Below the pieces are notes generated by a model that was not told the origin of the DNA, made no database searches, and saw only the letters and a program-made list of their open reading frames with translations. DNA of 64,000 bases from Streptomyces sp. NBC_00820 (GTDB lineage: Bacteria > Actinomycetota > Actinomycetes > Streptomycetales > Streptomycetaceae), in NCBI RefSeq assembly GCF_036347055.1, contig NZ_CP108882.1, positions 124,001 to 188,000 on the forward strand, read 5' to 3'. Of this stretch, positions 29,710 through 50,325 are shown piece after piece. The stretch's first letter is position 1, and the number at the start of each line of letters is the position of its first letter. Made by a program: the position numbers and the translations under genes.

Positions 29710-29786
29710 CGCGGGGTGGAGCAGCTCGGTAGCTCGCTGGGCTCATAACCCAGAGGTCGCAGGTTCAAATCCTGTCCCCGCTACCA
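29710..29786 (+). tRNA. tRNA-fMet (CAT), initiator
   Basis: Complete cloverleaf of 77 nt with encoded CCA. The acceptor stem has the mismatched first position (C1/T72) of initiators, the anticodon stem carries the three consecutive G-C pairs before CTCATAA, and the T arm GCAGG-TTCAAAT-CCTGT pairs normally. A strong terminator begins three bases after CCA. An aberrant inverted copy lies at 9672-9746. Confidence 0.96.
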
Positions 29787-43959: not shown

Positions 43960-44210
43960 CGCCGCGGACACCGCGGTTGGCGAGCCAGGCCGTCAGCCTG
44001 GCCCGACCGGCCTGTGAGCACGTCACGCAGACGATTGACCATCCGCACGCGGTCGGCCACCATGCCCGACCGAGGTGCGGTCGATAGCGCGAGGTCGGCG
44101 GCCGGCTGGGCAGGCCCCTTGACAACTGCGAAGTCCTGTCGCCGGCGGACGGTTTCAGCGATGACATAGGCGTCACGAGCATCGGACTCGACCTCACCCC
44201 GCCAGTGCCG
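43960..44210 (-). pseudogene. IS110-family transposase fragment
   Basis: Minus-strand frame with WRGEVESDARDAYVIAETVR, then ADLALSTAPRSGMVADRVRM and VNRLRDVLTG. In IS110 transposases the DARDA segment carries a catalytic Asp of the DEDD domain and VADRxRxxNRLR follows it. The frame then breaks near RAGAETVAVIA-like sequence. Only about a quarter of the protein remains. Confidence 0.75.
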
Positions 44211-44472
44211 TGACCGGAAAGGTTCACCGTGTCGCGGCGGCCGGCATGGCGCCTCGCCGCGTTGTCGGACCACCGAGGTACGTCCGGTAGGAGCCGTGGC
44301 CCTCCGCCTTGCGATGCACCGCACGGGTCGCCGGCTGGGCGGCCTCCTTGCGGCTGGTGTCCTTCGCGCCCCGGTCCGGGCTCACACTCGCCGCCCCGCC
44401 CTCTCGGCCGGAAGGGACGGGGCAGGCGTTTAATCGGATGTGCGTGCGGCGCGGGGTTGTTAGGTTCGCCGT

Positions 44473-45204
44473 GTGCCGAAGCTGAATCAGATCATCGCAG
44501 TCGAAAAGGGCGTCAAGTCCAAGGCCCTCCAAGAGCTCACCCAGGCTCACCAGGACGTGCAGAAGCCCGCCCTGCTGGCCGGCATCTCCCGGACCTACCA
44601 GCCCAAGGACGAGGAGGGCGAGCAGCTGCCGCCCGAGTCCACGCGGGTGCAGATCAAGGCCGAGGACGCTCTGCGGGCGACTGCCGGGACGCTGACGCGG
44701 CTCTTCGACGTGACCGCGACGAAGGACTGGGCGAACCGGTCCGCGGTCGCGGACGTGGTGGTCGACGGTACTGTGCTGTTGCCCCAGGTGCCCGTCCCGT
44801 ACCTGTTGTTCCTGGAGAAGCAACTCACCGACCTGCACACCTTCGTGCGCAAGCTGCCGGTGCTCGACGCCTCCGAGTCGTGGAACCTGGACCCCTCGAC
44901 GGACTCGTGGAAGACGGACCCGGTGCGGACCATCCGCACGAAGAAGGTTCCGCGCAACCACGTGAAGGCCGAGGCCACGGAGAAGCACCCGGCGCAGGTC
45001 GAGGTGTACTACGAGGACGTCCCAGTCGGTTACTGGACCACGGTGAAGTTCTCCGGCGCGCTGCCCGCCCGTCGGGTCAACGAGCTCCTCGACCGCGTCG
45101 AGAAGCTCCAGCAGTCCGTCAAGTTCGCCCGCGAGGAGGCGAACAACACCGAGGTCACCGACCAACGGGTCGGCGAAGCGGTATTCGGCTACCTCTTCCG
45201 GTAG
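44473..45204 (+). CDS. Conserved hypothetical protein next to permuted tRNA genes
   Basis: 243 aa from GTG 44473 (MPKLNQIIAVEKGVKSKALQ). The protein is soluble, Lys/Glu-rich, with helical ends and a beta-rich centre (AVADVVVDGTVLLPQVPVPY, KHPAQVEVYYEDVPVGYWTT). The C-terminal part (VNELLDRVEKLQQSVKFARE) is a likely coiled coil. I believe it belongs to a conserved phage/plasmid-like family of unknown function (perhaps DUF7873), but have no domain evidence. A 7-bp hairpin starts 12 bp after its stop and the first permuted tRNA begins about 45 bp later, so the gene and RNAs may form one cassette. Confidence 0.78.
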   Translation: MPKLNQIIAVEKGVKSKALQELTQAHQDVQKPALLAGISRTYQPKDEEGEQLPPESTRVQIKAEDALRATAGTLTRLFDVTATKDWANRSAVADVVVDGTVLLPQVPVPYLLFLEKQLTDLHTFVRKLPVLDASESWNLDPSTDSWKTDPVRTIRTKKVPRNHVKAEATEKHPAQVEVYYEDVPVGYWTTVKFSGALPARRVNELLDRVEKLQQSVKFAREEANNTEVTDQRVGEAVFGYLFR

Positions 45205-45216
45205 CCCCCACATACG

Positions 45217-45237
45217 CCCTCCGTCGCGAGCGGAGGG
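45217..45237 (+). terminator. Hairpin between the conserved gene and the permuted tRNAs
   Basis: CCCTCCG, TCGCGAG loop, CGGAGGG: a perfect 7-bp stem. It could terminate the upstream gene or act as a processing site in a joint transcript. Confidence 0.55.
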
Positions 45238-45278
45238 TGCGCGATGAGCGCAAGCTGAAACTGATGTTGAAGCTGATG

Positions 45279-45363
45279 AAGGGGTGTCAGTTGGGGGTTC
45301 GAATCCCTCTCCCCGCACCACGTGCGGGGGTGGCCCAAGCCTGGCAGAGGCGGCCCCGTGAAA
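45279..45363 (+). tRNA. Circularly permuted tRNA, anticodon GAA (Phe)
   Basis: The 3' half comes first: GGGGT (45281-45285), variable GTCAGTT, T arm GGGGG-TTCGAAT-CCCTC, acceptor TCCCCGC, A73 and CCA ending at 45320. Three bases later the 5' half starts: acceptor GCGGGGG (45324-45330), D arm GCC/GGC with a GG-containing loop, anticodon strand GCCCC (45353-45357), then G, T33, GAA (45360-45362) and A37. Acceptor pairing between the halves is 7/7 (one wobble) and anticodon-stem pairing 5/5 (one wobble). The flanks GAAGCTGA (45269-45276) and TCAGATTC (45365-45372) also pair at seven of eight positions, holding the anticodon ends together. Confidence 0.75.
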
Positions 45364-45429
45364 CTCAGATTCTCGCTCCAGTCTCAGTATTCGCCGCCGA
45401 ACACCGGATCGACCGAGCGTGGGCGAACA

Positions 45430-45506
45430 TCGACGGATGGGGGTTCAAGTCCCCTCGGCGCCTCTCTCGTGGCGCTGTAGTTCAAAGGCAGAACACGTCG
45501 ATCTCA
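45430..45506 (+). tRNA. Circularly permuted tRNA, anticodon CTC (Glu)
   Basis: The 3' half comes first: anticodon strand CGACG (45431-45435), a three-base variable region, T arm GGGGG-TTCAAGT-CCCCT, acceptor CGGCGCC (45456-45462), with no CCA encoded. Eight bases later the 5' half begins: acceptor GGCGCTG (45471-45477), T8, A9, D stem GTTC/GAAC with loop AAAGGCA, A26, anticodon strand CGTCG (45496-45500), A, T33, CTC (45503-45505), A37. Pairing between halves is 7/7 with one wobble in the acceptor stem and a perfect 5/5 in the anticodon stem. The flanks 45418-45423 and 45513-45518 can form six more pairs. Confidence 0.75.
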
Positions 45507-45559
45507 ACATGACCCGCGGTTCTTAAACGCCGCCGGTGTGCGCAAATGGGTGGCAAGCT

Positions 45560-45592
45560 GGAGCCCGGGAGCTGGACATGCTCCCGGGCTCC
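45560..45592 (+). terminator. Strong terminator closing the permuted tRNA cluster
   Basis: A 13-bp perfect stem (GGAGCCCGGGAGC against GCTCCCGGGCTCC) with loop TGGACAT, 54 bp downstream of the second permuted tRNA. Confidence 0.85.
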
Positions 45593-45722
45593 GTCACGTT
45601 CCTGGCCGCCGCTGACGCCCGTCGTTCGGATCATCTGGTAGTTGGCCAAGGCTGCTGACTGAAGAGTCGATCCCAGTTCCGATTGTGGCGTACGCGTCGG
45701 CACAAAGGACTTCCGCGAGGGC

Positions 45723-46047: not shown

Positions 46048-46867
46048 CGCGGATCGAGCCGTTGCTCCCGGACCGGACGCCGAAGCGGGGTGGCCGCTGG
46101 CGTGACCACCGGGAGGTGATCGACGCGATCGCCTTCAAGTTCCAGACCGGAACGCAGTGGGTCCACCTGCCGGAGAAGTATGGCAACTGGCGGGGCGTCT
46201 ACAACCGGCTGCGGATGTGGGCCGTCGACGGCACCTGGGAGCGGGTATTCACCGCGCTGATGGCCCAGGCCGACGCCGACGAGGACCTCAACTGGGCGGT
46301 CTCGGTGGACTCCACGATCGTGCGTGCTCACCAGCACGCGGCCGGGGCCCGCCAAAAGGGGCCCCGGCCGGCGAGCCGGACGACCACGCCATCGGCCGGT
46401 CCCGCGGCGGACTGACCACAAAGATCCACCTCGCCGCCGACGGCCGCTGCCGTCCGCTGACCTTCGTCCTTACCGCCGGGCAGGCCGGCAACGCGCCCGC
46501 ATTCACGGACGTCGTGGACCGCCTGCGCGTTCCCCGACCGCGAGGACGGCCCCGGACCCGGCCGGACGTGGTCCTGGCCGACAAGGCGTACTCCTCCCGC
46601 GCGATCCGCGACCACCTGCGCAAACGCAGCATCCGCGCGGTGATCCCCGTCCCGGCGGACCAGCGCGGCCATCGACCACGTCGCGGGAGCCGAGGCGGCA
46701 GGCCGCCCGCCTTCGACCGCGAGGCATACAAGCAGCGCAACACCGTCGAGCGGTGCATCAACCGCCTCAAGCAGTGGCACGGCATCGCCACCCGCTACGA
46801 GAAGACAGCCACGATCTACCTGGCCGGACTCCACGTCGCGGGCATCTTCCTCTGGTCCGCCCGATGA
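46035..46867 (+). CDS. IS5-family transposase in two frames
   Basis: The first frame (RIEPLLPDRTPKRGGRWRDH, HLPEKYGNWRGVYNRLRMWA, VDSTIVRAHQHAAGARQKG) and the second (GGLTTKIHLAADGRCRPLTF, PDVVLADKAYSSRAIRDHLR, YKQRNTVERCINRLKQW) together hold the DDE residues. The switch falls at CCAAAAGGGG near 46352-46361, a plausible -1 slippery site, as used by IS427-group elements for programmed frameshifting. The first 10-15 residues are missing or replaced. Whether it is still active is doubtful because of this N-terminal loss. Confidence 0.78.
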
Positions 46868-49463: not shown

Positions 49464-49880
49464 GTGCTGTGCATGATGGGGGCTGGCGCGCGTGAGTTGA
49501 TCGTGGCGGAGTACCGGGTCACTGGGCTGTCGCCGGATGTGATCGCTGAACTCATCGCAGAGGTAGGGCCGTTGTGGCACGAGCGGCATCAGGCGCGGCT
49601 CGCGGCTCGGCCGCGGCGGCGGGCTGTAGGAGCCGGGGCGAAGCACAAGTTCGTTTTCGTCGACCGGCTGGCCACGCTGGTGAATCTGCGTCATGGCACC
49701 ACTCATGACGTGTTGGGCTGCTGGTTCGGCGTGGATCGCTCCACCATCACGCGTGCCATCGGCGAGGTGCGGCCTCTGCTGGCGCAACGGGGTTGCACCG
49801 TCGCGCCGGGCATGCGGCTGTGCACTCTCGCCGAGGTCATCGAGCACACGGGCGTCAACGGCCGGACCGGGATTGTCGAC
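49464..49880 (+). pseudogene. Transposase N-terminal part (DDE_Tnp_4 type)
   Basis: RRAVGAGAKHKFVFVDRLAT, LVNLRHGTTHDVLGCWFGVD, RSTITRAIGEVRPLLAQRG and the start of VIEHTGVNGRTGIVD are the helix-turn-helix and first catalytic Asp region of an IS5-related transposase. At about 49880 the frame passes into an unrelated minus-strand gene fragment, so two thirds of the protein are missing. Confidence 0.78.
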
Positions 49881-50325
49881 GTGCCGTCAGCGGCCAAGGC
49901 GCCGGTGCGGGCGAGCGCGGCGAGCAGGGCGGCGTGGGCCCGCACCCGAACGGGTAGCGAGCCGACGGCGGCGGCCGTGCGTGCGGCCAGGTCGGCGTAG
50001 TGGCCGGAGCGGTCGGCAAGGGCCTGCGCCAGCCAGCCGTCGACCGCTGTGGCGCGGTAGTCGCCGCGCTGGACCAGGACGTCGCGGGCGGCCTCGTCTC
50101 CCGGCCGGCTCTCCACGGTCCGGTCGAGTCGGCCGGCTCCGGCGAGGTGCCCGAGTTCGTCGGCGCGGGCGGCGAGCTGCTGCTCCTGGAGGCGCTGCTG
50201 CTCGGCTTCGGCTGCTCGCCGGTCGGCGGCGAGTTCGTCCTGGACGACGACGTCGGACTTGGGGTCGTAGACGCCGCCGGTGGTGGCGAGCAGTTGCACG
50301 AGGGTCCCACGCCACTTTTCCGACC
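49880..50325 (-). pseudogene. Unrecognised gene fragment, truncated at both ends
   Basis: The frame reads GTLVQLLATTGGVYDPKSDV, then VVQDELAADRRAAEAEQQRL, ARDVLVQRGDYRATAVDGWL and ADLAARTAAAVGSLPVRVRA. It is helical and Ala/Arg/Glu-rich with excellent codon use, but its 5' side is joined to a reductase fragment and its 3' side to an IS. I do not recognise the family. Confidence 0.45.

What the first reader, a model, noticed from the sequence alone, without database searches (positions are those of the whole stretch)
45264..45520. Two circularly permuted tRNA genes in tandem (Phe GAA and Glu CTC)
In both units a complete 3' tRNA half precedes a complete 5' half, separated by 3 and 8 bases. Within each unit the acceptor strands pair 7/7 and the anticodon strands 5/5 across the permutation, with T33, conserved T loops, D stems and plausible anticodon loops. 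Halves of different units do not pair. The outer flanks also pair (45269-45276 with 45365-45372; 45418-45423 with 45513-45518), so each precursor would hold its anticodon ends together, like the flanking helix of permuted pre-tRNAs. To my knowledge permuted tRNA genes are described mainly from some algae and an archaeon. In bacteria, permutation is known for tmRNA, but I am not aware of tRNA examples.
Basis: partly seen in the sequence, partly recalled or inferred. Interest (0 to 1): 0.96.

Follow-up and report, generated by a model that had tools for sequence, protein, structure and literature searches.

The report
Phage-borne RNA with back-to-front tRNA mimics
Next to a widespread gene of unknown function lies a conserved stretch predicted to make one structured RNA with two tRNA-shaped modules written back to front; the pair recurs in Streptomyces and in phages of several bacteria, and it likely works as an RNA-protein particle that imitates tRNA rather than making working tRNAs.

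Summary
In detail: both units run T arm, acceptor 3' strand, linker, acceptor 5' strand, D arm. ARAGORN calls them Phe(GAA) and Glu(CTC) once rejoined, and the outer flanks pair. The tRNA-gene reading is not supported. The units cap one predicted ~300-nt structured RNA directly after a DUF7873 gene (44473-45204). In 61 genomes (own plus 60 relatives) each of 33 DUF7873 genes has the RNA just downstream; the 29 genomes without the gene have no strong match. Phage homologues (Gordonia, Arthrobacter, Rhodococcus, Klebsiella, Rhizobium, Vibrio) keep permuted units, often near tRNA genes. Helices outside the tRNA-like parts covary. The 'anticodon' and U33 are not constant, and in 14 distinct loci unit 1 is reduced to a smaller hairpin or lost. 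The genome has normal Phe(GAA) and Glu(CTC) tRNA genes and no splicing-endonuclease match. The layout resembles bacterial Y RNAs (YrlA), but Rfam's cut-off is not reached and no Ro protein matches. Best reading, inferred: a DUF7873-partnered tRNA-mimic RNP on a small mobile cassette. Against it: the window's own minimum-energy fold lacks the outer helices. Transcription and binding are untested; no paper found names DUF7873.

The parts
44461..44466 (+). TAGGTT, a -10-like hexamer 6 nt before the GTG start of the DUF7873 gene (mRNA predicted leaderless)
   Evidence: read from sequence; similar in L051-L062; promoter function untested
44473..45204 (+). DUF7873 gene (243 aa, GTG start): predicted protein partner
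   Evidence: Pfam PF25283, 402.5 bits; AlphaFold2 mean pLDDT 91.3
45215..45251 (+). GC-rich hairpin and GCGC hairpin at the 5' side of the RNA region
   Evidence: read from sequence; similar hairpins in relatives
45255..45263 (+). helix H1 5' strand (pairs with 45379-45387, one A-C mismatch), base of domain 1
   Evidence: 79.5% of cells paired in 39 sequences; absent from the window's minimum-energy fold
45269..45276 (+). helix H2 5' strand (pairs with 45365-45372, one G-A mismatch)
   Evidence: 71.5% of cells paired; absent from the minimum-energy fold
45281..45357 (+). tRNA-like unit 1, permuted (T arm, acceptor, linker ACCACGT, acceptor, D arm, closed by an anticodon-type stem)
45365..45387 (+). 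H2 and H1 3' strands with the conserved segment TCTCGCTCC (45371-45379), candidate protein-binding site
   Evidence: invariant columns in A2; function inferred
45393..45398 (+). helix P0 5' strand (pairs with 45549-45554), closes domain 2
   Evidence: 97.0% paired, 4 of 6 pairs changed on both sides
45402..45407 (+). helix Pa 5' strand (pairs with 45533-45538)
   Evidence: 100% paired, 5 of 6 pairs changed on both sides
45408..45414 (+). conserved ATCGACC, faces 45523-45529 (TTAAACG) in an internal loop
   Evidence: conserved columns in A3
45415..45423 (+). helix Pb 5' strand (pairs with 45513-45522, one bulge in the window)
   Evidence: 93.4% paired, 8 of 9 pairs changed on both sides
45429..45435 (+). 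helix Pc 5' strand (pairs with 45496-45502, 7 bp; inner 5 bp are the anticodon-type stem)
   Evidence: in the minimum-energy fold; not aligned well enough to count across sequences
45431..45500 (+). tRNA-like unit 2, permuted
   Evidence: wholly present in the minimum-energy fold
45560..45592 (+). 3' hairpin, terminator-like; its loop fits YGGMYAY
   Evidence: YGGMYAY occurs within a 110-nt stretch after unit 2 in 77 of 104 loci against 10.9% of shuffles, position in a loop not checked elsewhere

Best explanation
Shown: permuted tRNA-like order, covarying helices, strict genetic linkage to DUF7873, presence in bacteria, on a plasmid (L084) and in phages, and natural absence of cap 1 in some loci. 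Inferred: that the region is transcribed as a stable RNA, that DUF7873 binds it (perhaps at the conserved segments 45371-45379 and 45408-45414/45523-45529), and that the caps recruit or occupy a tRNA-binding factor (RNase P, tRNase Z, CCA-adding enzyme, a modification enzyme, PNPase or a tRNA-attacking toxin). Its placement near phage tRNA genes suggests it serves phage control of, or protection from, tRNA-targeting host factors; this is a guess.
For: Linkage: of 61 genomes (own plus 60), 32 have DUF7873 (33 genes) and the same 32 have the 33 R1 matches of at least 60 bits, each just downstream on the same strand; the best match in the 29 genomes without DUF7873 is 49.4 bits and partial, of the kind that two tandem normal tRNA genes give. 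17 of the 33 were not in the model's training set. Scanner: units in 135 of 138 loci (128 of 131 distinct), two units in 102 (98); of the 3 misses, R1 finds full-length domain 2 in L038 (95.8 bits), a weak full-length match in L136, 2 kb downstream (37.0), and a partial one in L041 (26.2). Covariation in helices that the scanner did not select: P0, Pa and Pb have 17 of 21 pairs with two-sided changes; the whole counted structure is 97.9% paired against 82.4% in shuffles (0 of 500 reach it), slid versions at most 46.8%. Cap 1 reduced or lost in 15 loci, 14 distinct. Phage homologues at about 30% protein identity keep permuted units. 14 of 26 viral loci have ARAGORN tRNAs in the 4-5 kb on either side, leaving out one that overlaps the RNA itself. 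YrlA is the only Rfam family to hit both units, full length, E 0.0053 and 0.01 on this stretch. Bacterial Y RNAs with a tRNA-like domain, a protein-bound stem and PNPase are described in PMC8394870 (passages).
Against: No transcript, binding or function data. The minimum-energy fold of the window RNA contains unit 2 with its stem (23 of 23 pairs) but none of the pairs of H1, H2, P0, Pa or Pb; the proposed structure is at -103.7 kcal/mol (-117.9 with compatible pairs added) against -123.9 for the minimum, and the z-score is -1.32. The counted structures were read from one of the aligned sequences and the RNAalifold fold, which by itself favours them over the slid versions. H1 and H2 are only 79.5% and 71.5% paired, and for domain 1 one of five measures is reached by 17 of 500 shuffles. 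By E-value alone R1 rings in 49 of 61 genomes; the split rests on bit score and match length, and only 45 candidates per genome were scored with stricter filters. The partner role of DUF7873 rests on linkage; its predicted fold has no clear match. An encoded NCCA follows the unit 1 acceptor in 50 of 112 loci against 4.9% in shuffled linkers, which hints at 3'-end maturation that a pure scaffold would not need. Klebsiella and Vibrio phage loci (L137, L139) are not matched by R1, and unit 1 is unresolved in 9 divergent loci.
Confidence: 0.62

Rival explanations
1. True circularly permuted tRNA genes: the transcript is cut at the anticodon ends, ligated (for example by RtcB), and the linker removed by RNase P and tRNase Z to give working tRNA-Phe and tRNA-Glu.
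For: Near-perfect cloverleaf parts; rejoined halves called tRNA 237 of 237; encoded ACCA after the unit 1 acceptor; RtcB gene in the genome; the 34-36 triplet CTC of unit 2 kept in all 12 closest relatives and GAA of unit 1 in 9 of 12.
Against: 34-36 triplets of 27 and 25 kinds over all loci, and CAA instead of GAA in 3 of 12 close relatives; U33 in 28 of 101 and 38 of 108 distinct units; cap 1 lost or reduced in 14 distinct loci; outer helices conserved; no splicing endonuclease PF01974; normal Phe(GAA) and Glu(CTC) genes present.
Confidence: 0.06
2. A two-piece-tmRNA-like RNA: RNase P and tRNase Z cut out each linker, giving a multi-piece RNA with free CCA ends that could be charged with amino acids.
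For: Encoded NCCA after the unit 1 acceptor in 50 of 112 loci against 4.9% in shuffled linkers; acceptor, T and D arms intact; two-piece tmRNA is the precedent in bacteria (PMC3978253, passages).
Against: Unit 2 has NCCA in only 9 of 125; unit 1 linkers as short as 4 nt; no tmRNA match above 7.7 bits. Aminoacylation identity elements were not tested.
Confidence: 0.17
3. A diverged branch of the Y RNA (YrlA) family by descent, with DUF7873 in place of Ro.
For: Same order and stem placement; both units match RF02553 over its full length.
Against: 24.3 and 23.3 bits against a cut-off of 69; no TROVE match in the genome or in 8 of 9 phage records; much of the shared part is generic tRNA sequence, so convergence fits as well.
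Confidence: 0.12
4. Remnants of tandem tRNA genes rearranged by duplication and deletion, without function.
For: Tandem normal tRNA genes do produce false permuted hits (L001).
Against: Conserved in phages of distant hosts, with covariation outside the tRNA parts and strict linkage to DUF7873.
Confidence: 0.02

Closest known systems
YrlA / bacterial Y RNA (RF02553)
   Same: T arm, acceptor hairpin and D arm in permuted order as a cap on a long stem (Rfam model); known tRNA mimic and substrate of tRNA-modifying enzymes (PMC8394870, passages); more than one Y RNA in the Salmonella rsr-yrlBA operon (PMC7790460, passages)
   Different: Below Rfam's cut-off; no Ro/Rsr match in the genome; linked to DUF7873; both caps lie in one conserved array with its own outer helices and 3' hairpin
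Circularly permuted tRNA genes of algae and Thermofilum
   Same: 3' half before 5' half with pairing flanks
   Different: No bulge-helix-bulge motif, no splicing endonuclease match, no constant anticodon; 34 genes from six algae and one archaeon reported in PMC3978253 (passages)
Two-piece (permuted) tmRNA
   Same: Acceptor ends lie inside the gene around a short linker
   Different: No tmRNA match; two tRNA-like modules; maturation not shown
GOLLD and ROOL RNAs
   Same: Phage-borne structured RNAs often near tRNA islands (PMC12286853, passages)
   Different: Much smaller, no match to these Rfam families, tied to a protein gene

Membership tests
circularly permuted tRNA genes | 3' half precedes 5' half with pairing acceptor and anticodon stems | tested here: met
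circularly permuted tRNA genes | bulge-helix-bulge at the junction and a splicing endonuclease | tested here: not met
   in the proposed fold, internal loops of 4/7 and 5/10 nt without a central 4-bp helix (coordinates); no PF01974 match in the genome
circularly permuted tRNA genes | constant anticodon and U33 | tested here: not met
circularly permuted tRNA genes | circular intermediate and charged mature tRNA | not testable with these tools
   needs RNA data
YrlA Y RNA | Rfam RF02553 gathering score | tested here: not met
   24.3 and 23.3 bits against 69; no YrlA at cut-off in 12 loci
YrlA Y RNA | permuted T/acceptor/D module on a stem | tested here: met
YrlA Y RNA | Ro/Rsr (TROVE) protein in the genome | tested here: not met
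   0 matches to PF05731 in the 8.1-Mb genome; 1 of 9 phage records has one, about 6 kb from the RNA
YrlA Y RNA | binds Rsr and PNPase | not testable with these tools
   needs biochemistry
tmRNA | Rfam RF00023 gathering score | tested here: not met
   7.7 bits against 47
tmRNA | tag reading frame and SmpB-dependent function | not tested
   not examined
GOLLD/ROOL | Rfam match | tested here: not met
   no match to either at the gathering threshold in 12 loci, nor at E<=1 in the window stretch

The most novel reading that the evidence does not exclude
A new class of mobile ribonucleoprotein: DUF7873 with a multi-domain RNA whose permuted tRNA-like caps are cut by RNase P and tRNase Z into free CCA ends, so that a multi-piece RNA with two tRNA-like arms is made and used by phages and bacteria to capture, charge or poison the tRNA machinery.
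Probability: 0.17. Interest if true: 0.92.

Novelty: new variant of a known kind. Interest (0 to 1): 0.74.

Why it matters
It gives a large protein family without known function (7957 of 7999 scored candidates matched in a capped search) a concrete RNA partner to test, suggests that permuted tRNA mimicry in bacteria and phages is not confined to Ro-linked Y RNAs, and marks an unannotated RNA gene in phages of several hosts, often close to the tRNA genes whose purpose in phages is debated. The naturally cap-less loci offer ready-made controls.

Tried and rejected
YrlA search of the own genome gave one hit, L001; rejected because ARAGORN shows two tandem normal tRNA-Asn genes. I take the weaker partial R1 hits in genomes without DUF7873 for the same artefact, from their model range and from L001; they were not checked one by one.

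A promoter of its own for the RNA: TANNNT within 45 nt after the stop in 38 of 138 loci against 14.5% in shuffles; too weak to claim. RNAalifold on 53 sequences aligned without structure found only part of the structure. Helix Pc could not be counted across A3 because V loops differ in length. Single-sequence folding of the window does not give the outer helices.

Dropped rows: of 52 domain 2 references I aligned 44 and of 47 domain 1 references 39, leaving out doubtful scanner calls, long linkers or very divergent phages. L049 was left out as a copy of L037. Seven of the 138 loci are copies of others. R1's training set includes 16 of its 33 strong hits. Of 26 loci without a scanner unit 1, 15 are the reduced ones, L037 and its copy L049 hold a unit that the scanner missed, and 9 are unresolved. 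One search asked for one phage name and found no paper.

Papers: Chen et al. 2014 is not held and is known here only through passages of others. Passages, not whole texts, were seen in PMC7790460, PMC9569102, PMC8394870, PMC12282133, PMC4726728, PMC3978253, PMC10085705 and PMC12286853. Paper searches in which I saw no description of this RNA or of DUF7873, judged from the listings: (open-licence PMC papers only). These do not prove that it is unpublished.

Full report
What is there. Window 45264-45520 holds two units in which the 3' part of a tRNA precedes the 5' part. T arms, D arms, 7-bp acceptor stems across linkers of 7 and 8 nt, and 5-bp anticodon-type stems are all present. ARAGORN sees nothing there in genomic order, but calls tRNA-Phe(gaa) and tRNA-Glu(ctc) when the halves are rejoined.

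It is not an isolated curiosity. The gene just upstream (44473-45204) is DUF7873 (402.5 bits). I collected 138 DUF7873 loci, 131 of them distinct: the window, relatives' genomes, named genomes, viral contigs and annotated phages. A scanner for permuted units finds 237 units in 135 of 138 downstream regions, and 3 in 2760 shuffled copies. A covariance model of domain 2 (R1) has a match at each of the three missed loci, weak in two of them. In 61 genomes (own plus 60 relatives) the 33 R1 matches of at least 60 bits coincide one for one with the 33 DUF7873 genes, and the 29 genomes without the gene have no match above 49.4 bits. By E-value alone R1 rings in 49 of 61, because tandem normal tRNA genes resemble part of the model. 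In a sample of 296 genomes of the phylum, 6 have DUF7873, the window's own included, all in the window's genus.

It looks like one RNA, not two tRNA genes. Domain 1 is a long stem (H1, H2) capped by unit 1. Domain 2 is a stem (P0, Pa, Pb, Pc) capped by unit 2. A terminator-like 3' hairpin follows. On 44 sequences the counted domain 2 structure is 97.9% paired against 82.4% in shuffles and at most 46.8% when slid. P0, Pa and Pb, which the scanner did not select for, have two-sided changes in 17 of 21 pairs. The structure was read from one of these sequences and from the RNAalifold result, which favours it over the slid versions. Domain 1 is less clear: 85.9% paired overall against 78.4% in shuffles, H1 79.5%, H2 71.5%, and one of five measures is reached by 17 of 500 shuffles. 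The window's own minimum-energy fold contains unit 2 and its stem but no pair of H1, H2, P0, Pa or Pb, and lies 6 kcal/mol below the best fold that keeps the proposed pairs. Among the most constant letters are ones outside the tRNA-like parts (45371-45379; 45408-45414 facing 45523-45529).

Why not tRNA genes. The would-be anticodon takes 27 forms among 112 units 1 and 25 among 125 units 2, and U33 is present in 28 of 101 and 38 of 108 distinct units. In 15 loci, 14 distinct, the space of unit 1 shrinks from a median of 114 nt (least 110) to 37-92 nt and holds a smaller hairpin or nothing. The genome has normal tRNA-Phe(GAA) and three tRNA-Glu(CTC) genes and no splicing endonuclease match. Against this, it does have RtcB, and CTC is kept in all 12 closest relatives, GAA in 9 of 12.

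What it works like. Bacterial Y RNAs of the YrlA type have this layout: a protein-bound stem and a tRNA-like cap, modified by tRNA enzymes and linked to PNPase (PMC8394870, passages; operon in PMC7790460, passages); the permuted order shows in the Rfam model. Both units match RF02553 over its full length, but at 24.3 and 23.3 bits against a cut-off of 69, and the genome has no TROVE match. So it works like YrlA, but I do not file it as YrlA. DUF7873, whose model is confident (mean pLDDT 91.3) and without a recognisable fold, is the obvious candidate for the role that Ro plays; this is inference from linkage.

An open point is maturation. NCCA follows the unit 1 acceptor in 50 of 112 loci (4.9% expected from shuffled linkers) but in 9 of 125 at unit 2. 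This may be a trace of tRNA origin or a sign that RNase P and tRNase Z open the cap, as in two-piece tmRNA (precedent in PMC3978253, passages).

Where it lives. tblastn finds the protein in 73 phage records; in the 9 that I opened it is annotated 'hypothetical protein'. 14 of 26 viral loci carry tRNA genes within the 4-5 kb fetched on either side, 20 of them in Gordonia phage GodonK. GOLLD and ROOL RNAs share this habit (PMC12286853, passages). In Streptomyces the promoter-gene-RNA-terminator block is 93.9-97.7% identical in 12 named genomes (L051-L062), while apart from one trio the flanks are unrelated but for one weak 75.8% match between L051 and L054: it appears to move as a unit of about 1.2-1.4 kb.

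Verdict. I saw no description of it in the listings of ten paper searches limited to open-licence PMC.

Noticed in passing
window 44205-45613: The promoter-DUF7873-RNA-terminator block is 93.9-97.7% identical in 12 named Streptomyces genomes (L051-L062). Apart from the trio L057/L059/L062, flanks are unrelated but for one weak 75.8% match (L051/L054). A short shared word (AAGGTTCACCG) at both ends was found in L053 and L054 only.
   Followed up: partly
window 45560-45592 and relatives: The terminator-like 3' hairpin has the loop TGGACAT; the motif YGGMYAY occurs within a 110-nt stretch after unit 2 in 77 of 104 loci against 10.9% of shuffles, so this hairpin may be part of the working RNA.
   Followed up: partly
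window 29710-29786: A tRNA-Met(CAT) with the same tRNA score (61.7 bits) as seven other matches in the genome, several near the chromosome ends (56839, 192444, 7859582, 8049477); possible repeated copies on a mobile or terminal element.
   Followed up: no
record NC_070966.1 (L138), 140589-141332: Rhizobium phage RHph_TM30 has a TROVE (Ro-like) match about 6 kb from its DUF7873 gene.
   Followed up: no
L136, 6800-6952 and just after 4747: In Microcoleus phage My-WqHQDG an R1-like match (37 bits) lies 2 kb downstream, and right after the DUF7873 gene the sequence reads like a small acceptor-T-arm element in normal order.
   Followed up: partly
L132, 1384-1912: Gordonia phage GodonK has a tmRNA match (90.3 bits) where the record annotates a tRNA-His.
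   Followed up: no
G012:C1:4372584-4372751 and G005:C1:1412444-1412602: Weak full-length R1 matches (34.0 and 29.7 bits) away from the DUF7873 genes of those genomes; could be tandem tRNAs or a second, decayed copy.
   Followed up: no
control genome Deinobacterium chartae: The only one of 14 named control genomes with a DUF7873 match; it also has a TROVE match. Whether the RNA is there was not looked at.
   Followed up: no
window 46157-46867 and 49464-50000: Transposase-related genes (DDE_Tnp_1, HTH_Tnp_4) downstream of the cassette.
   Followed up: no
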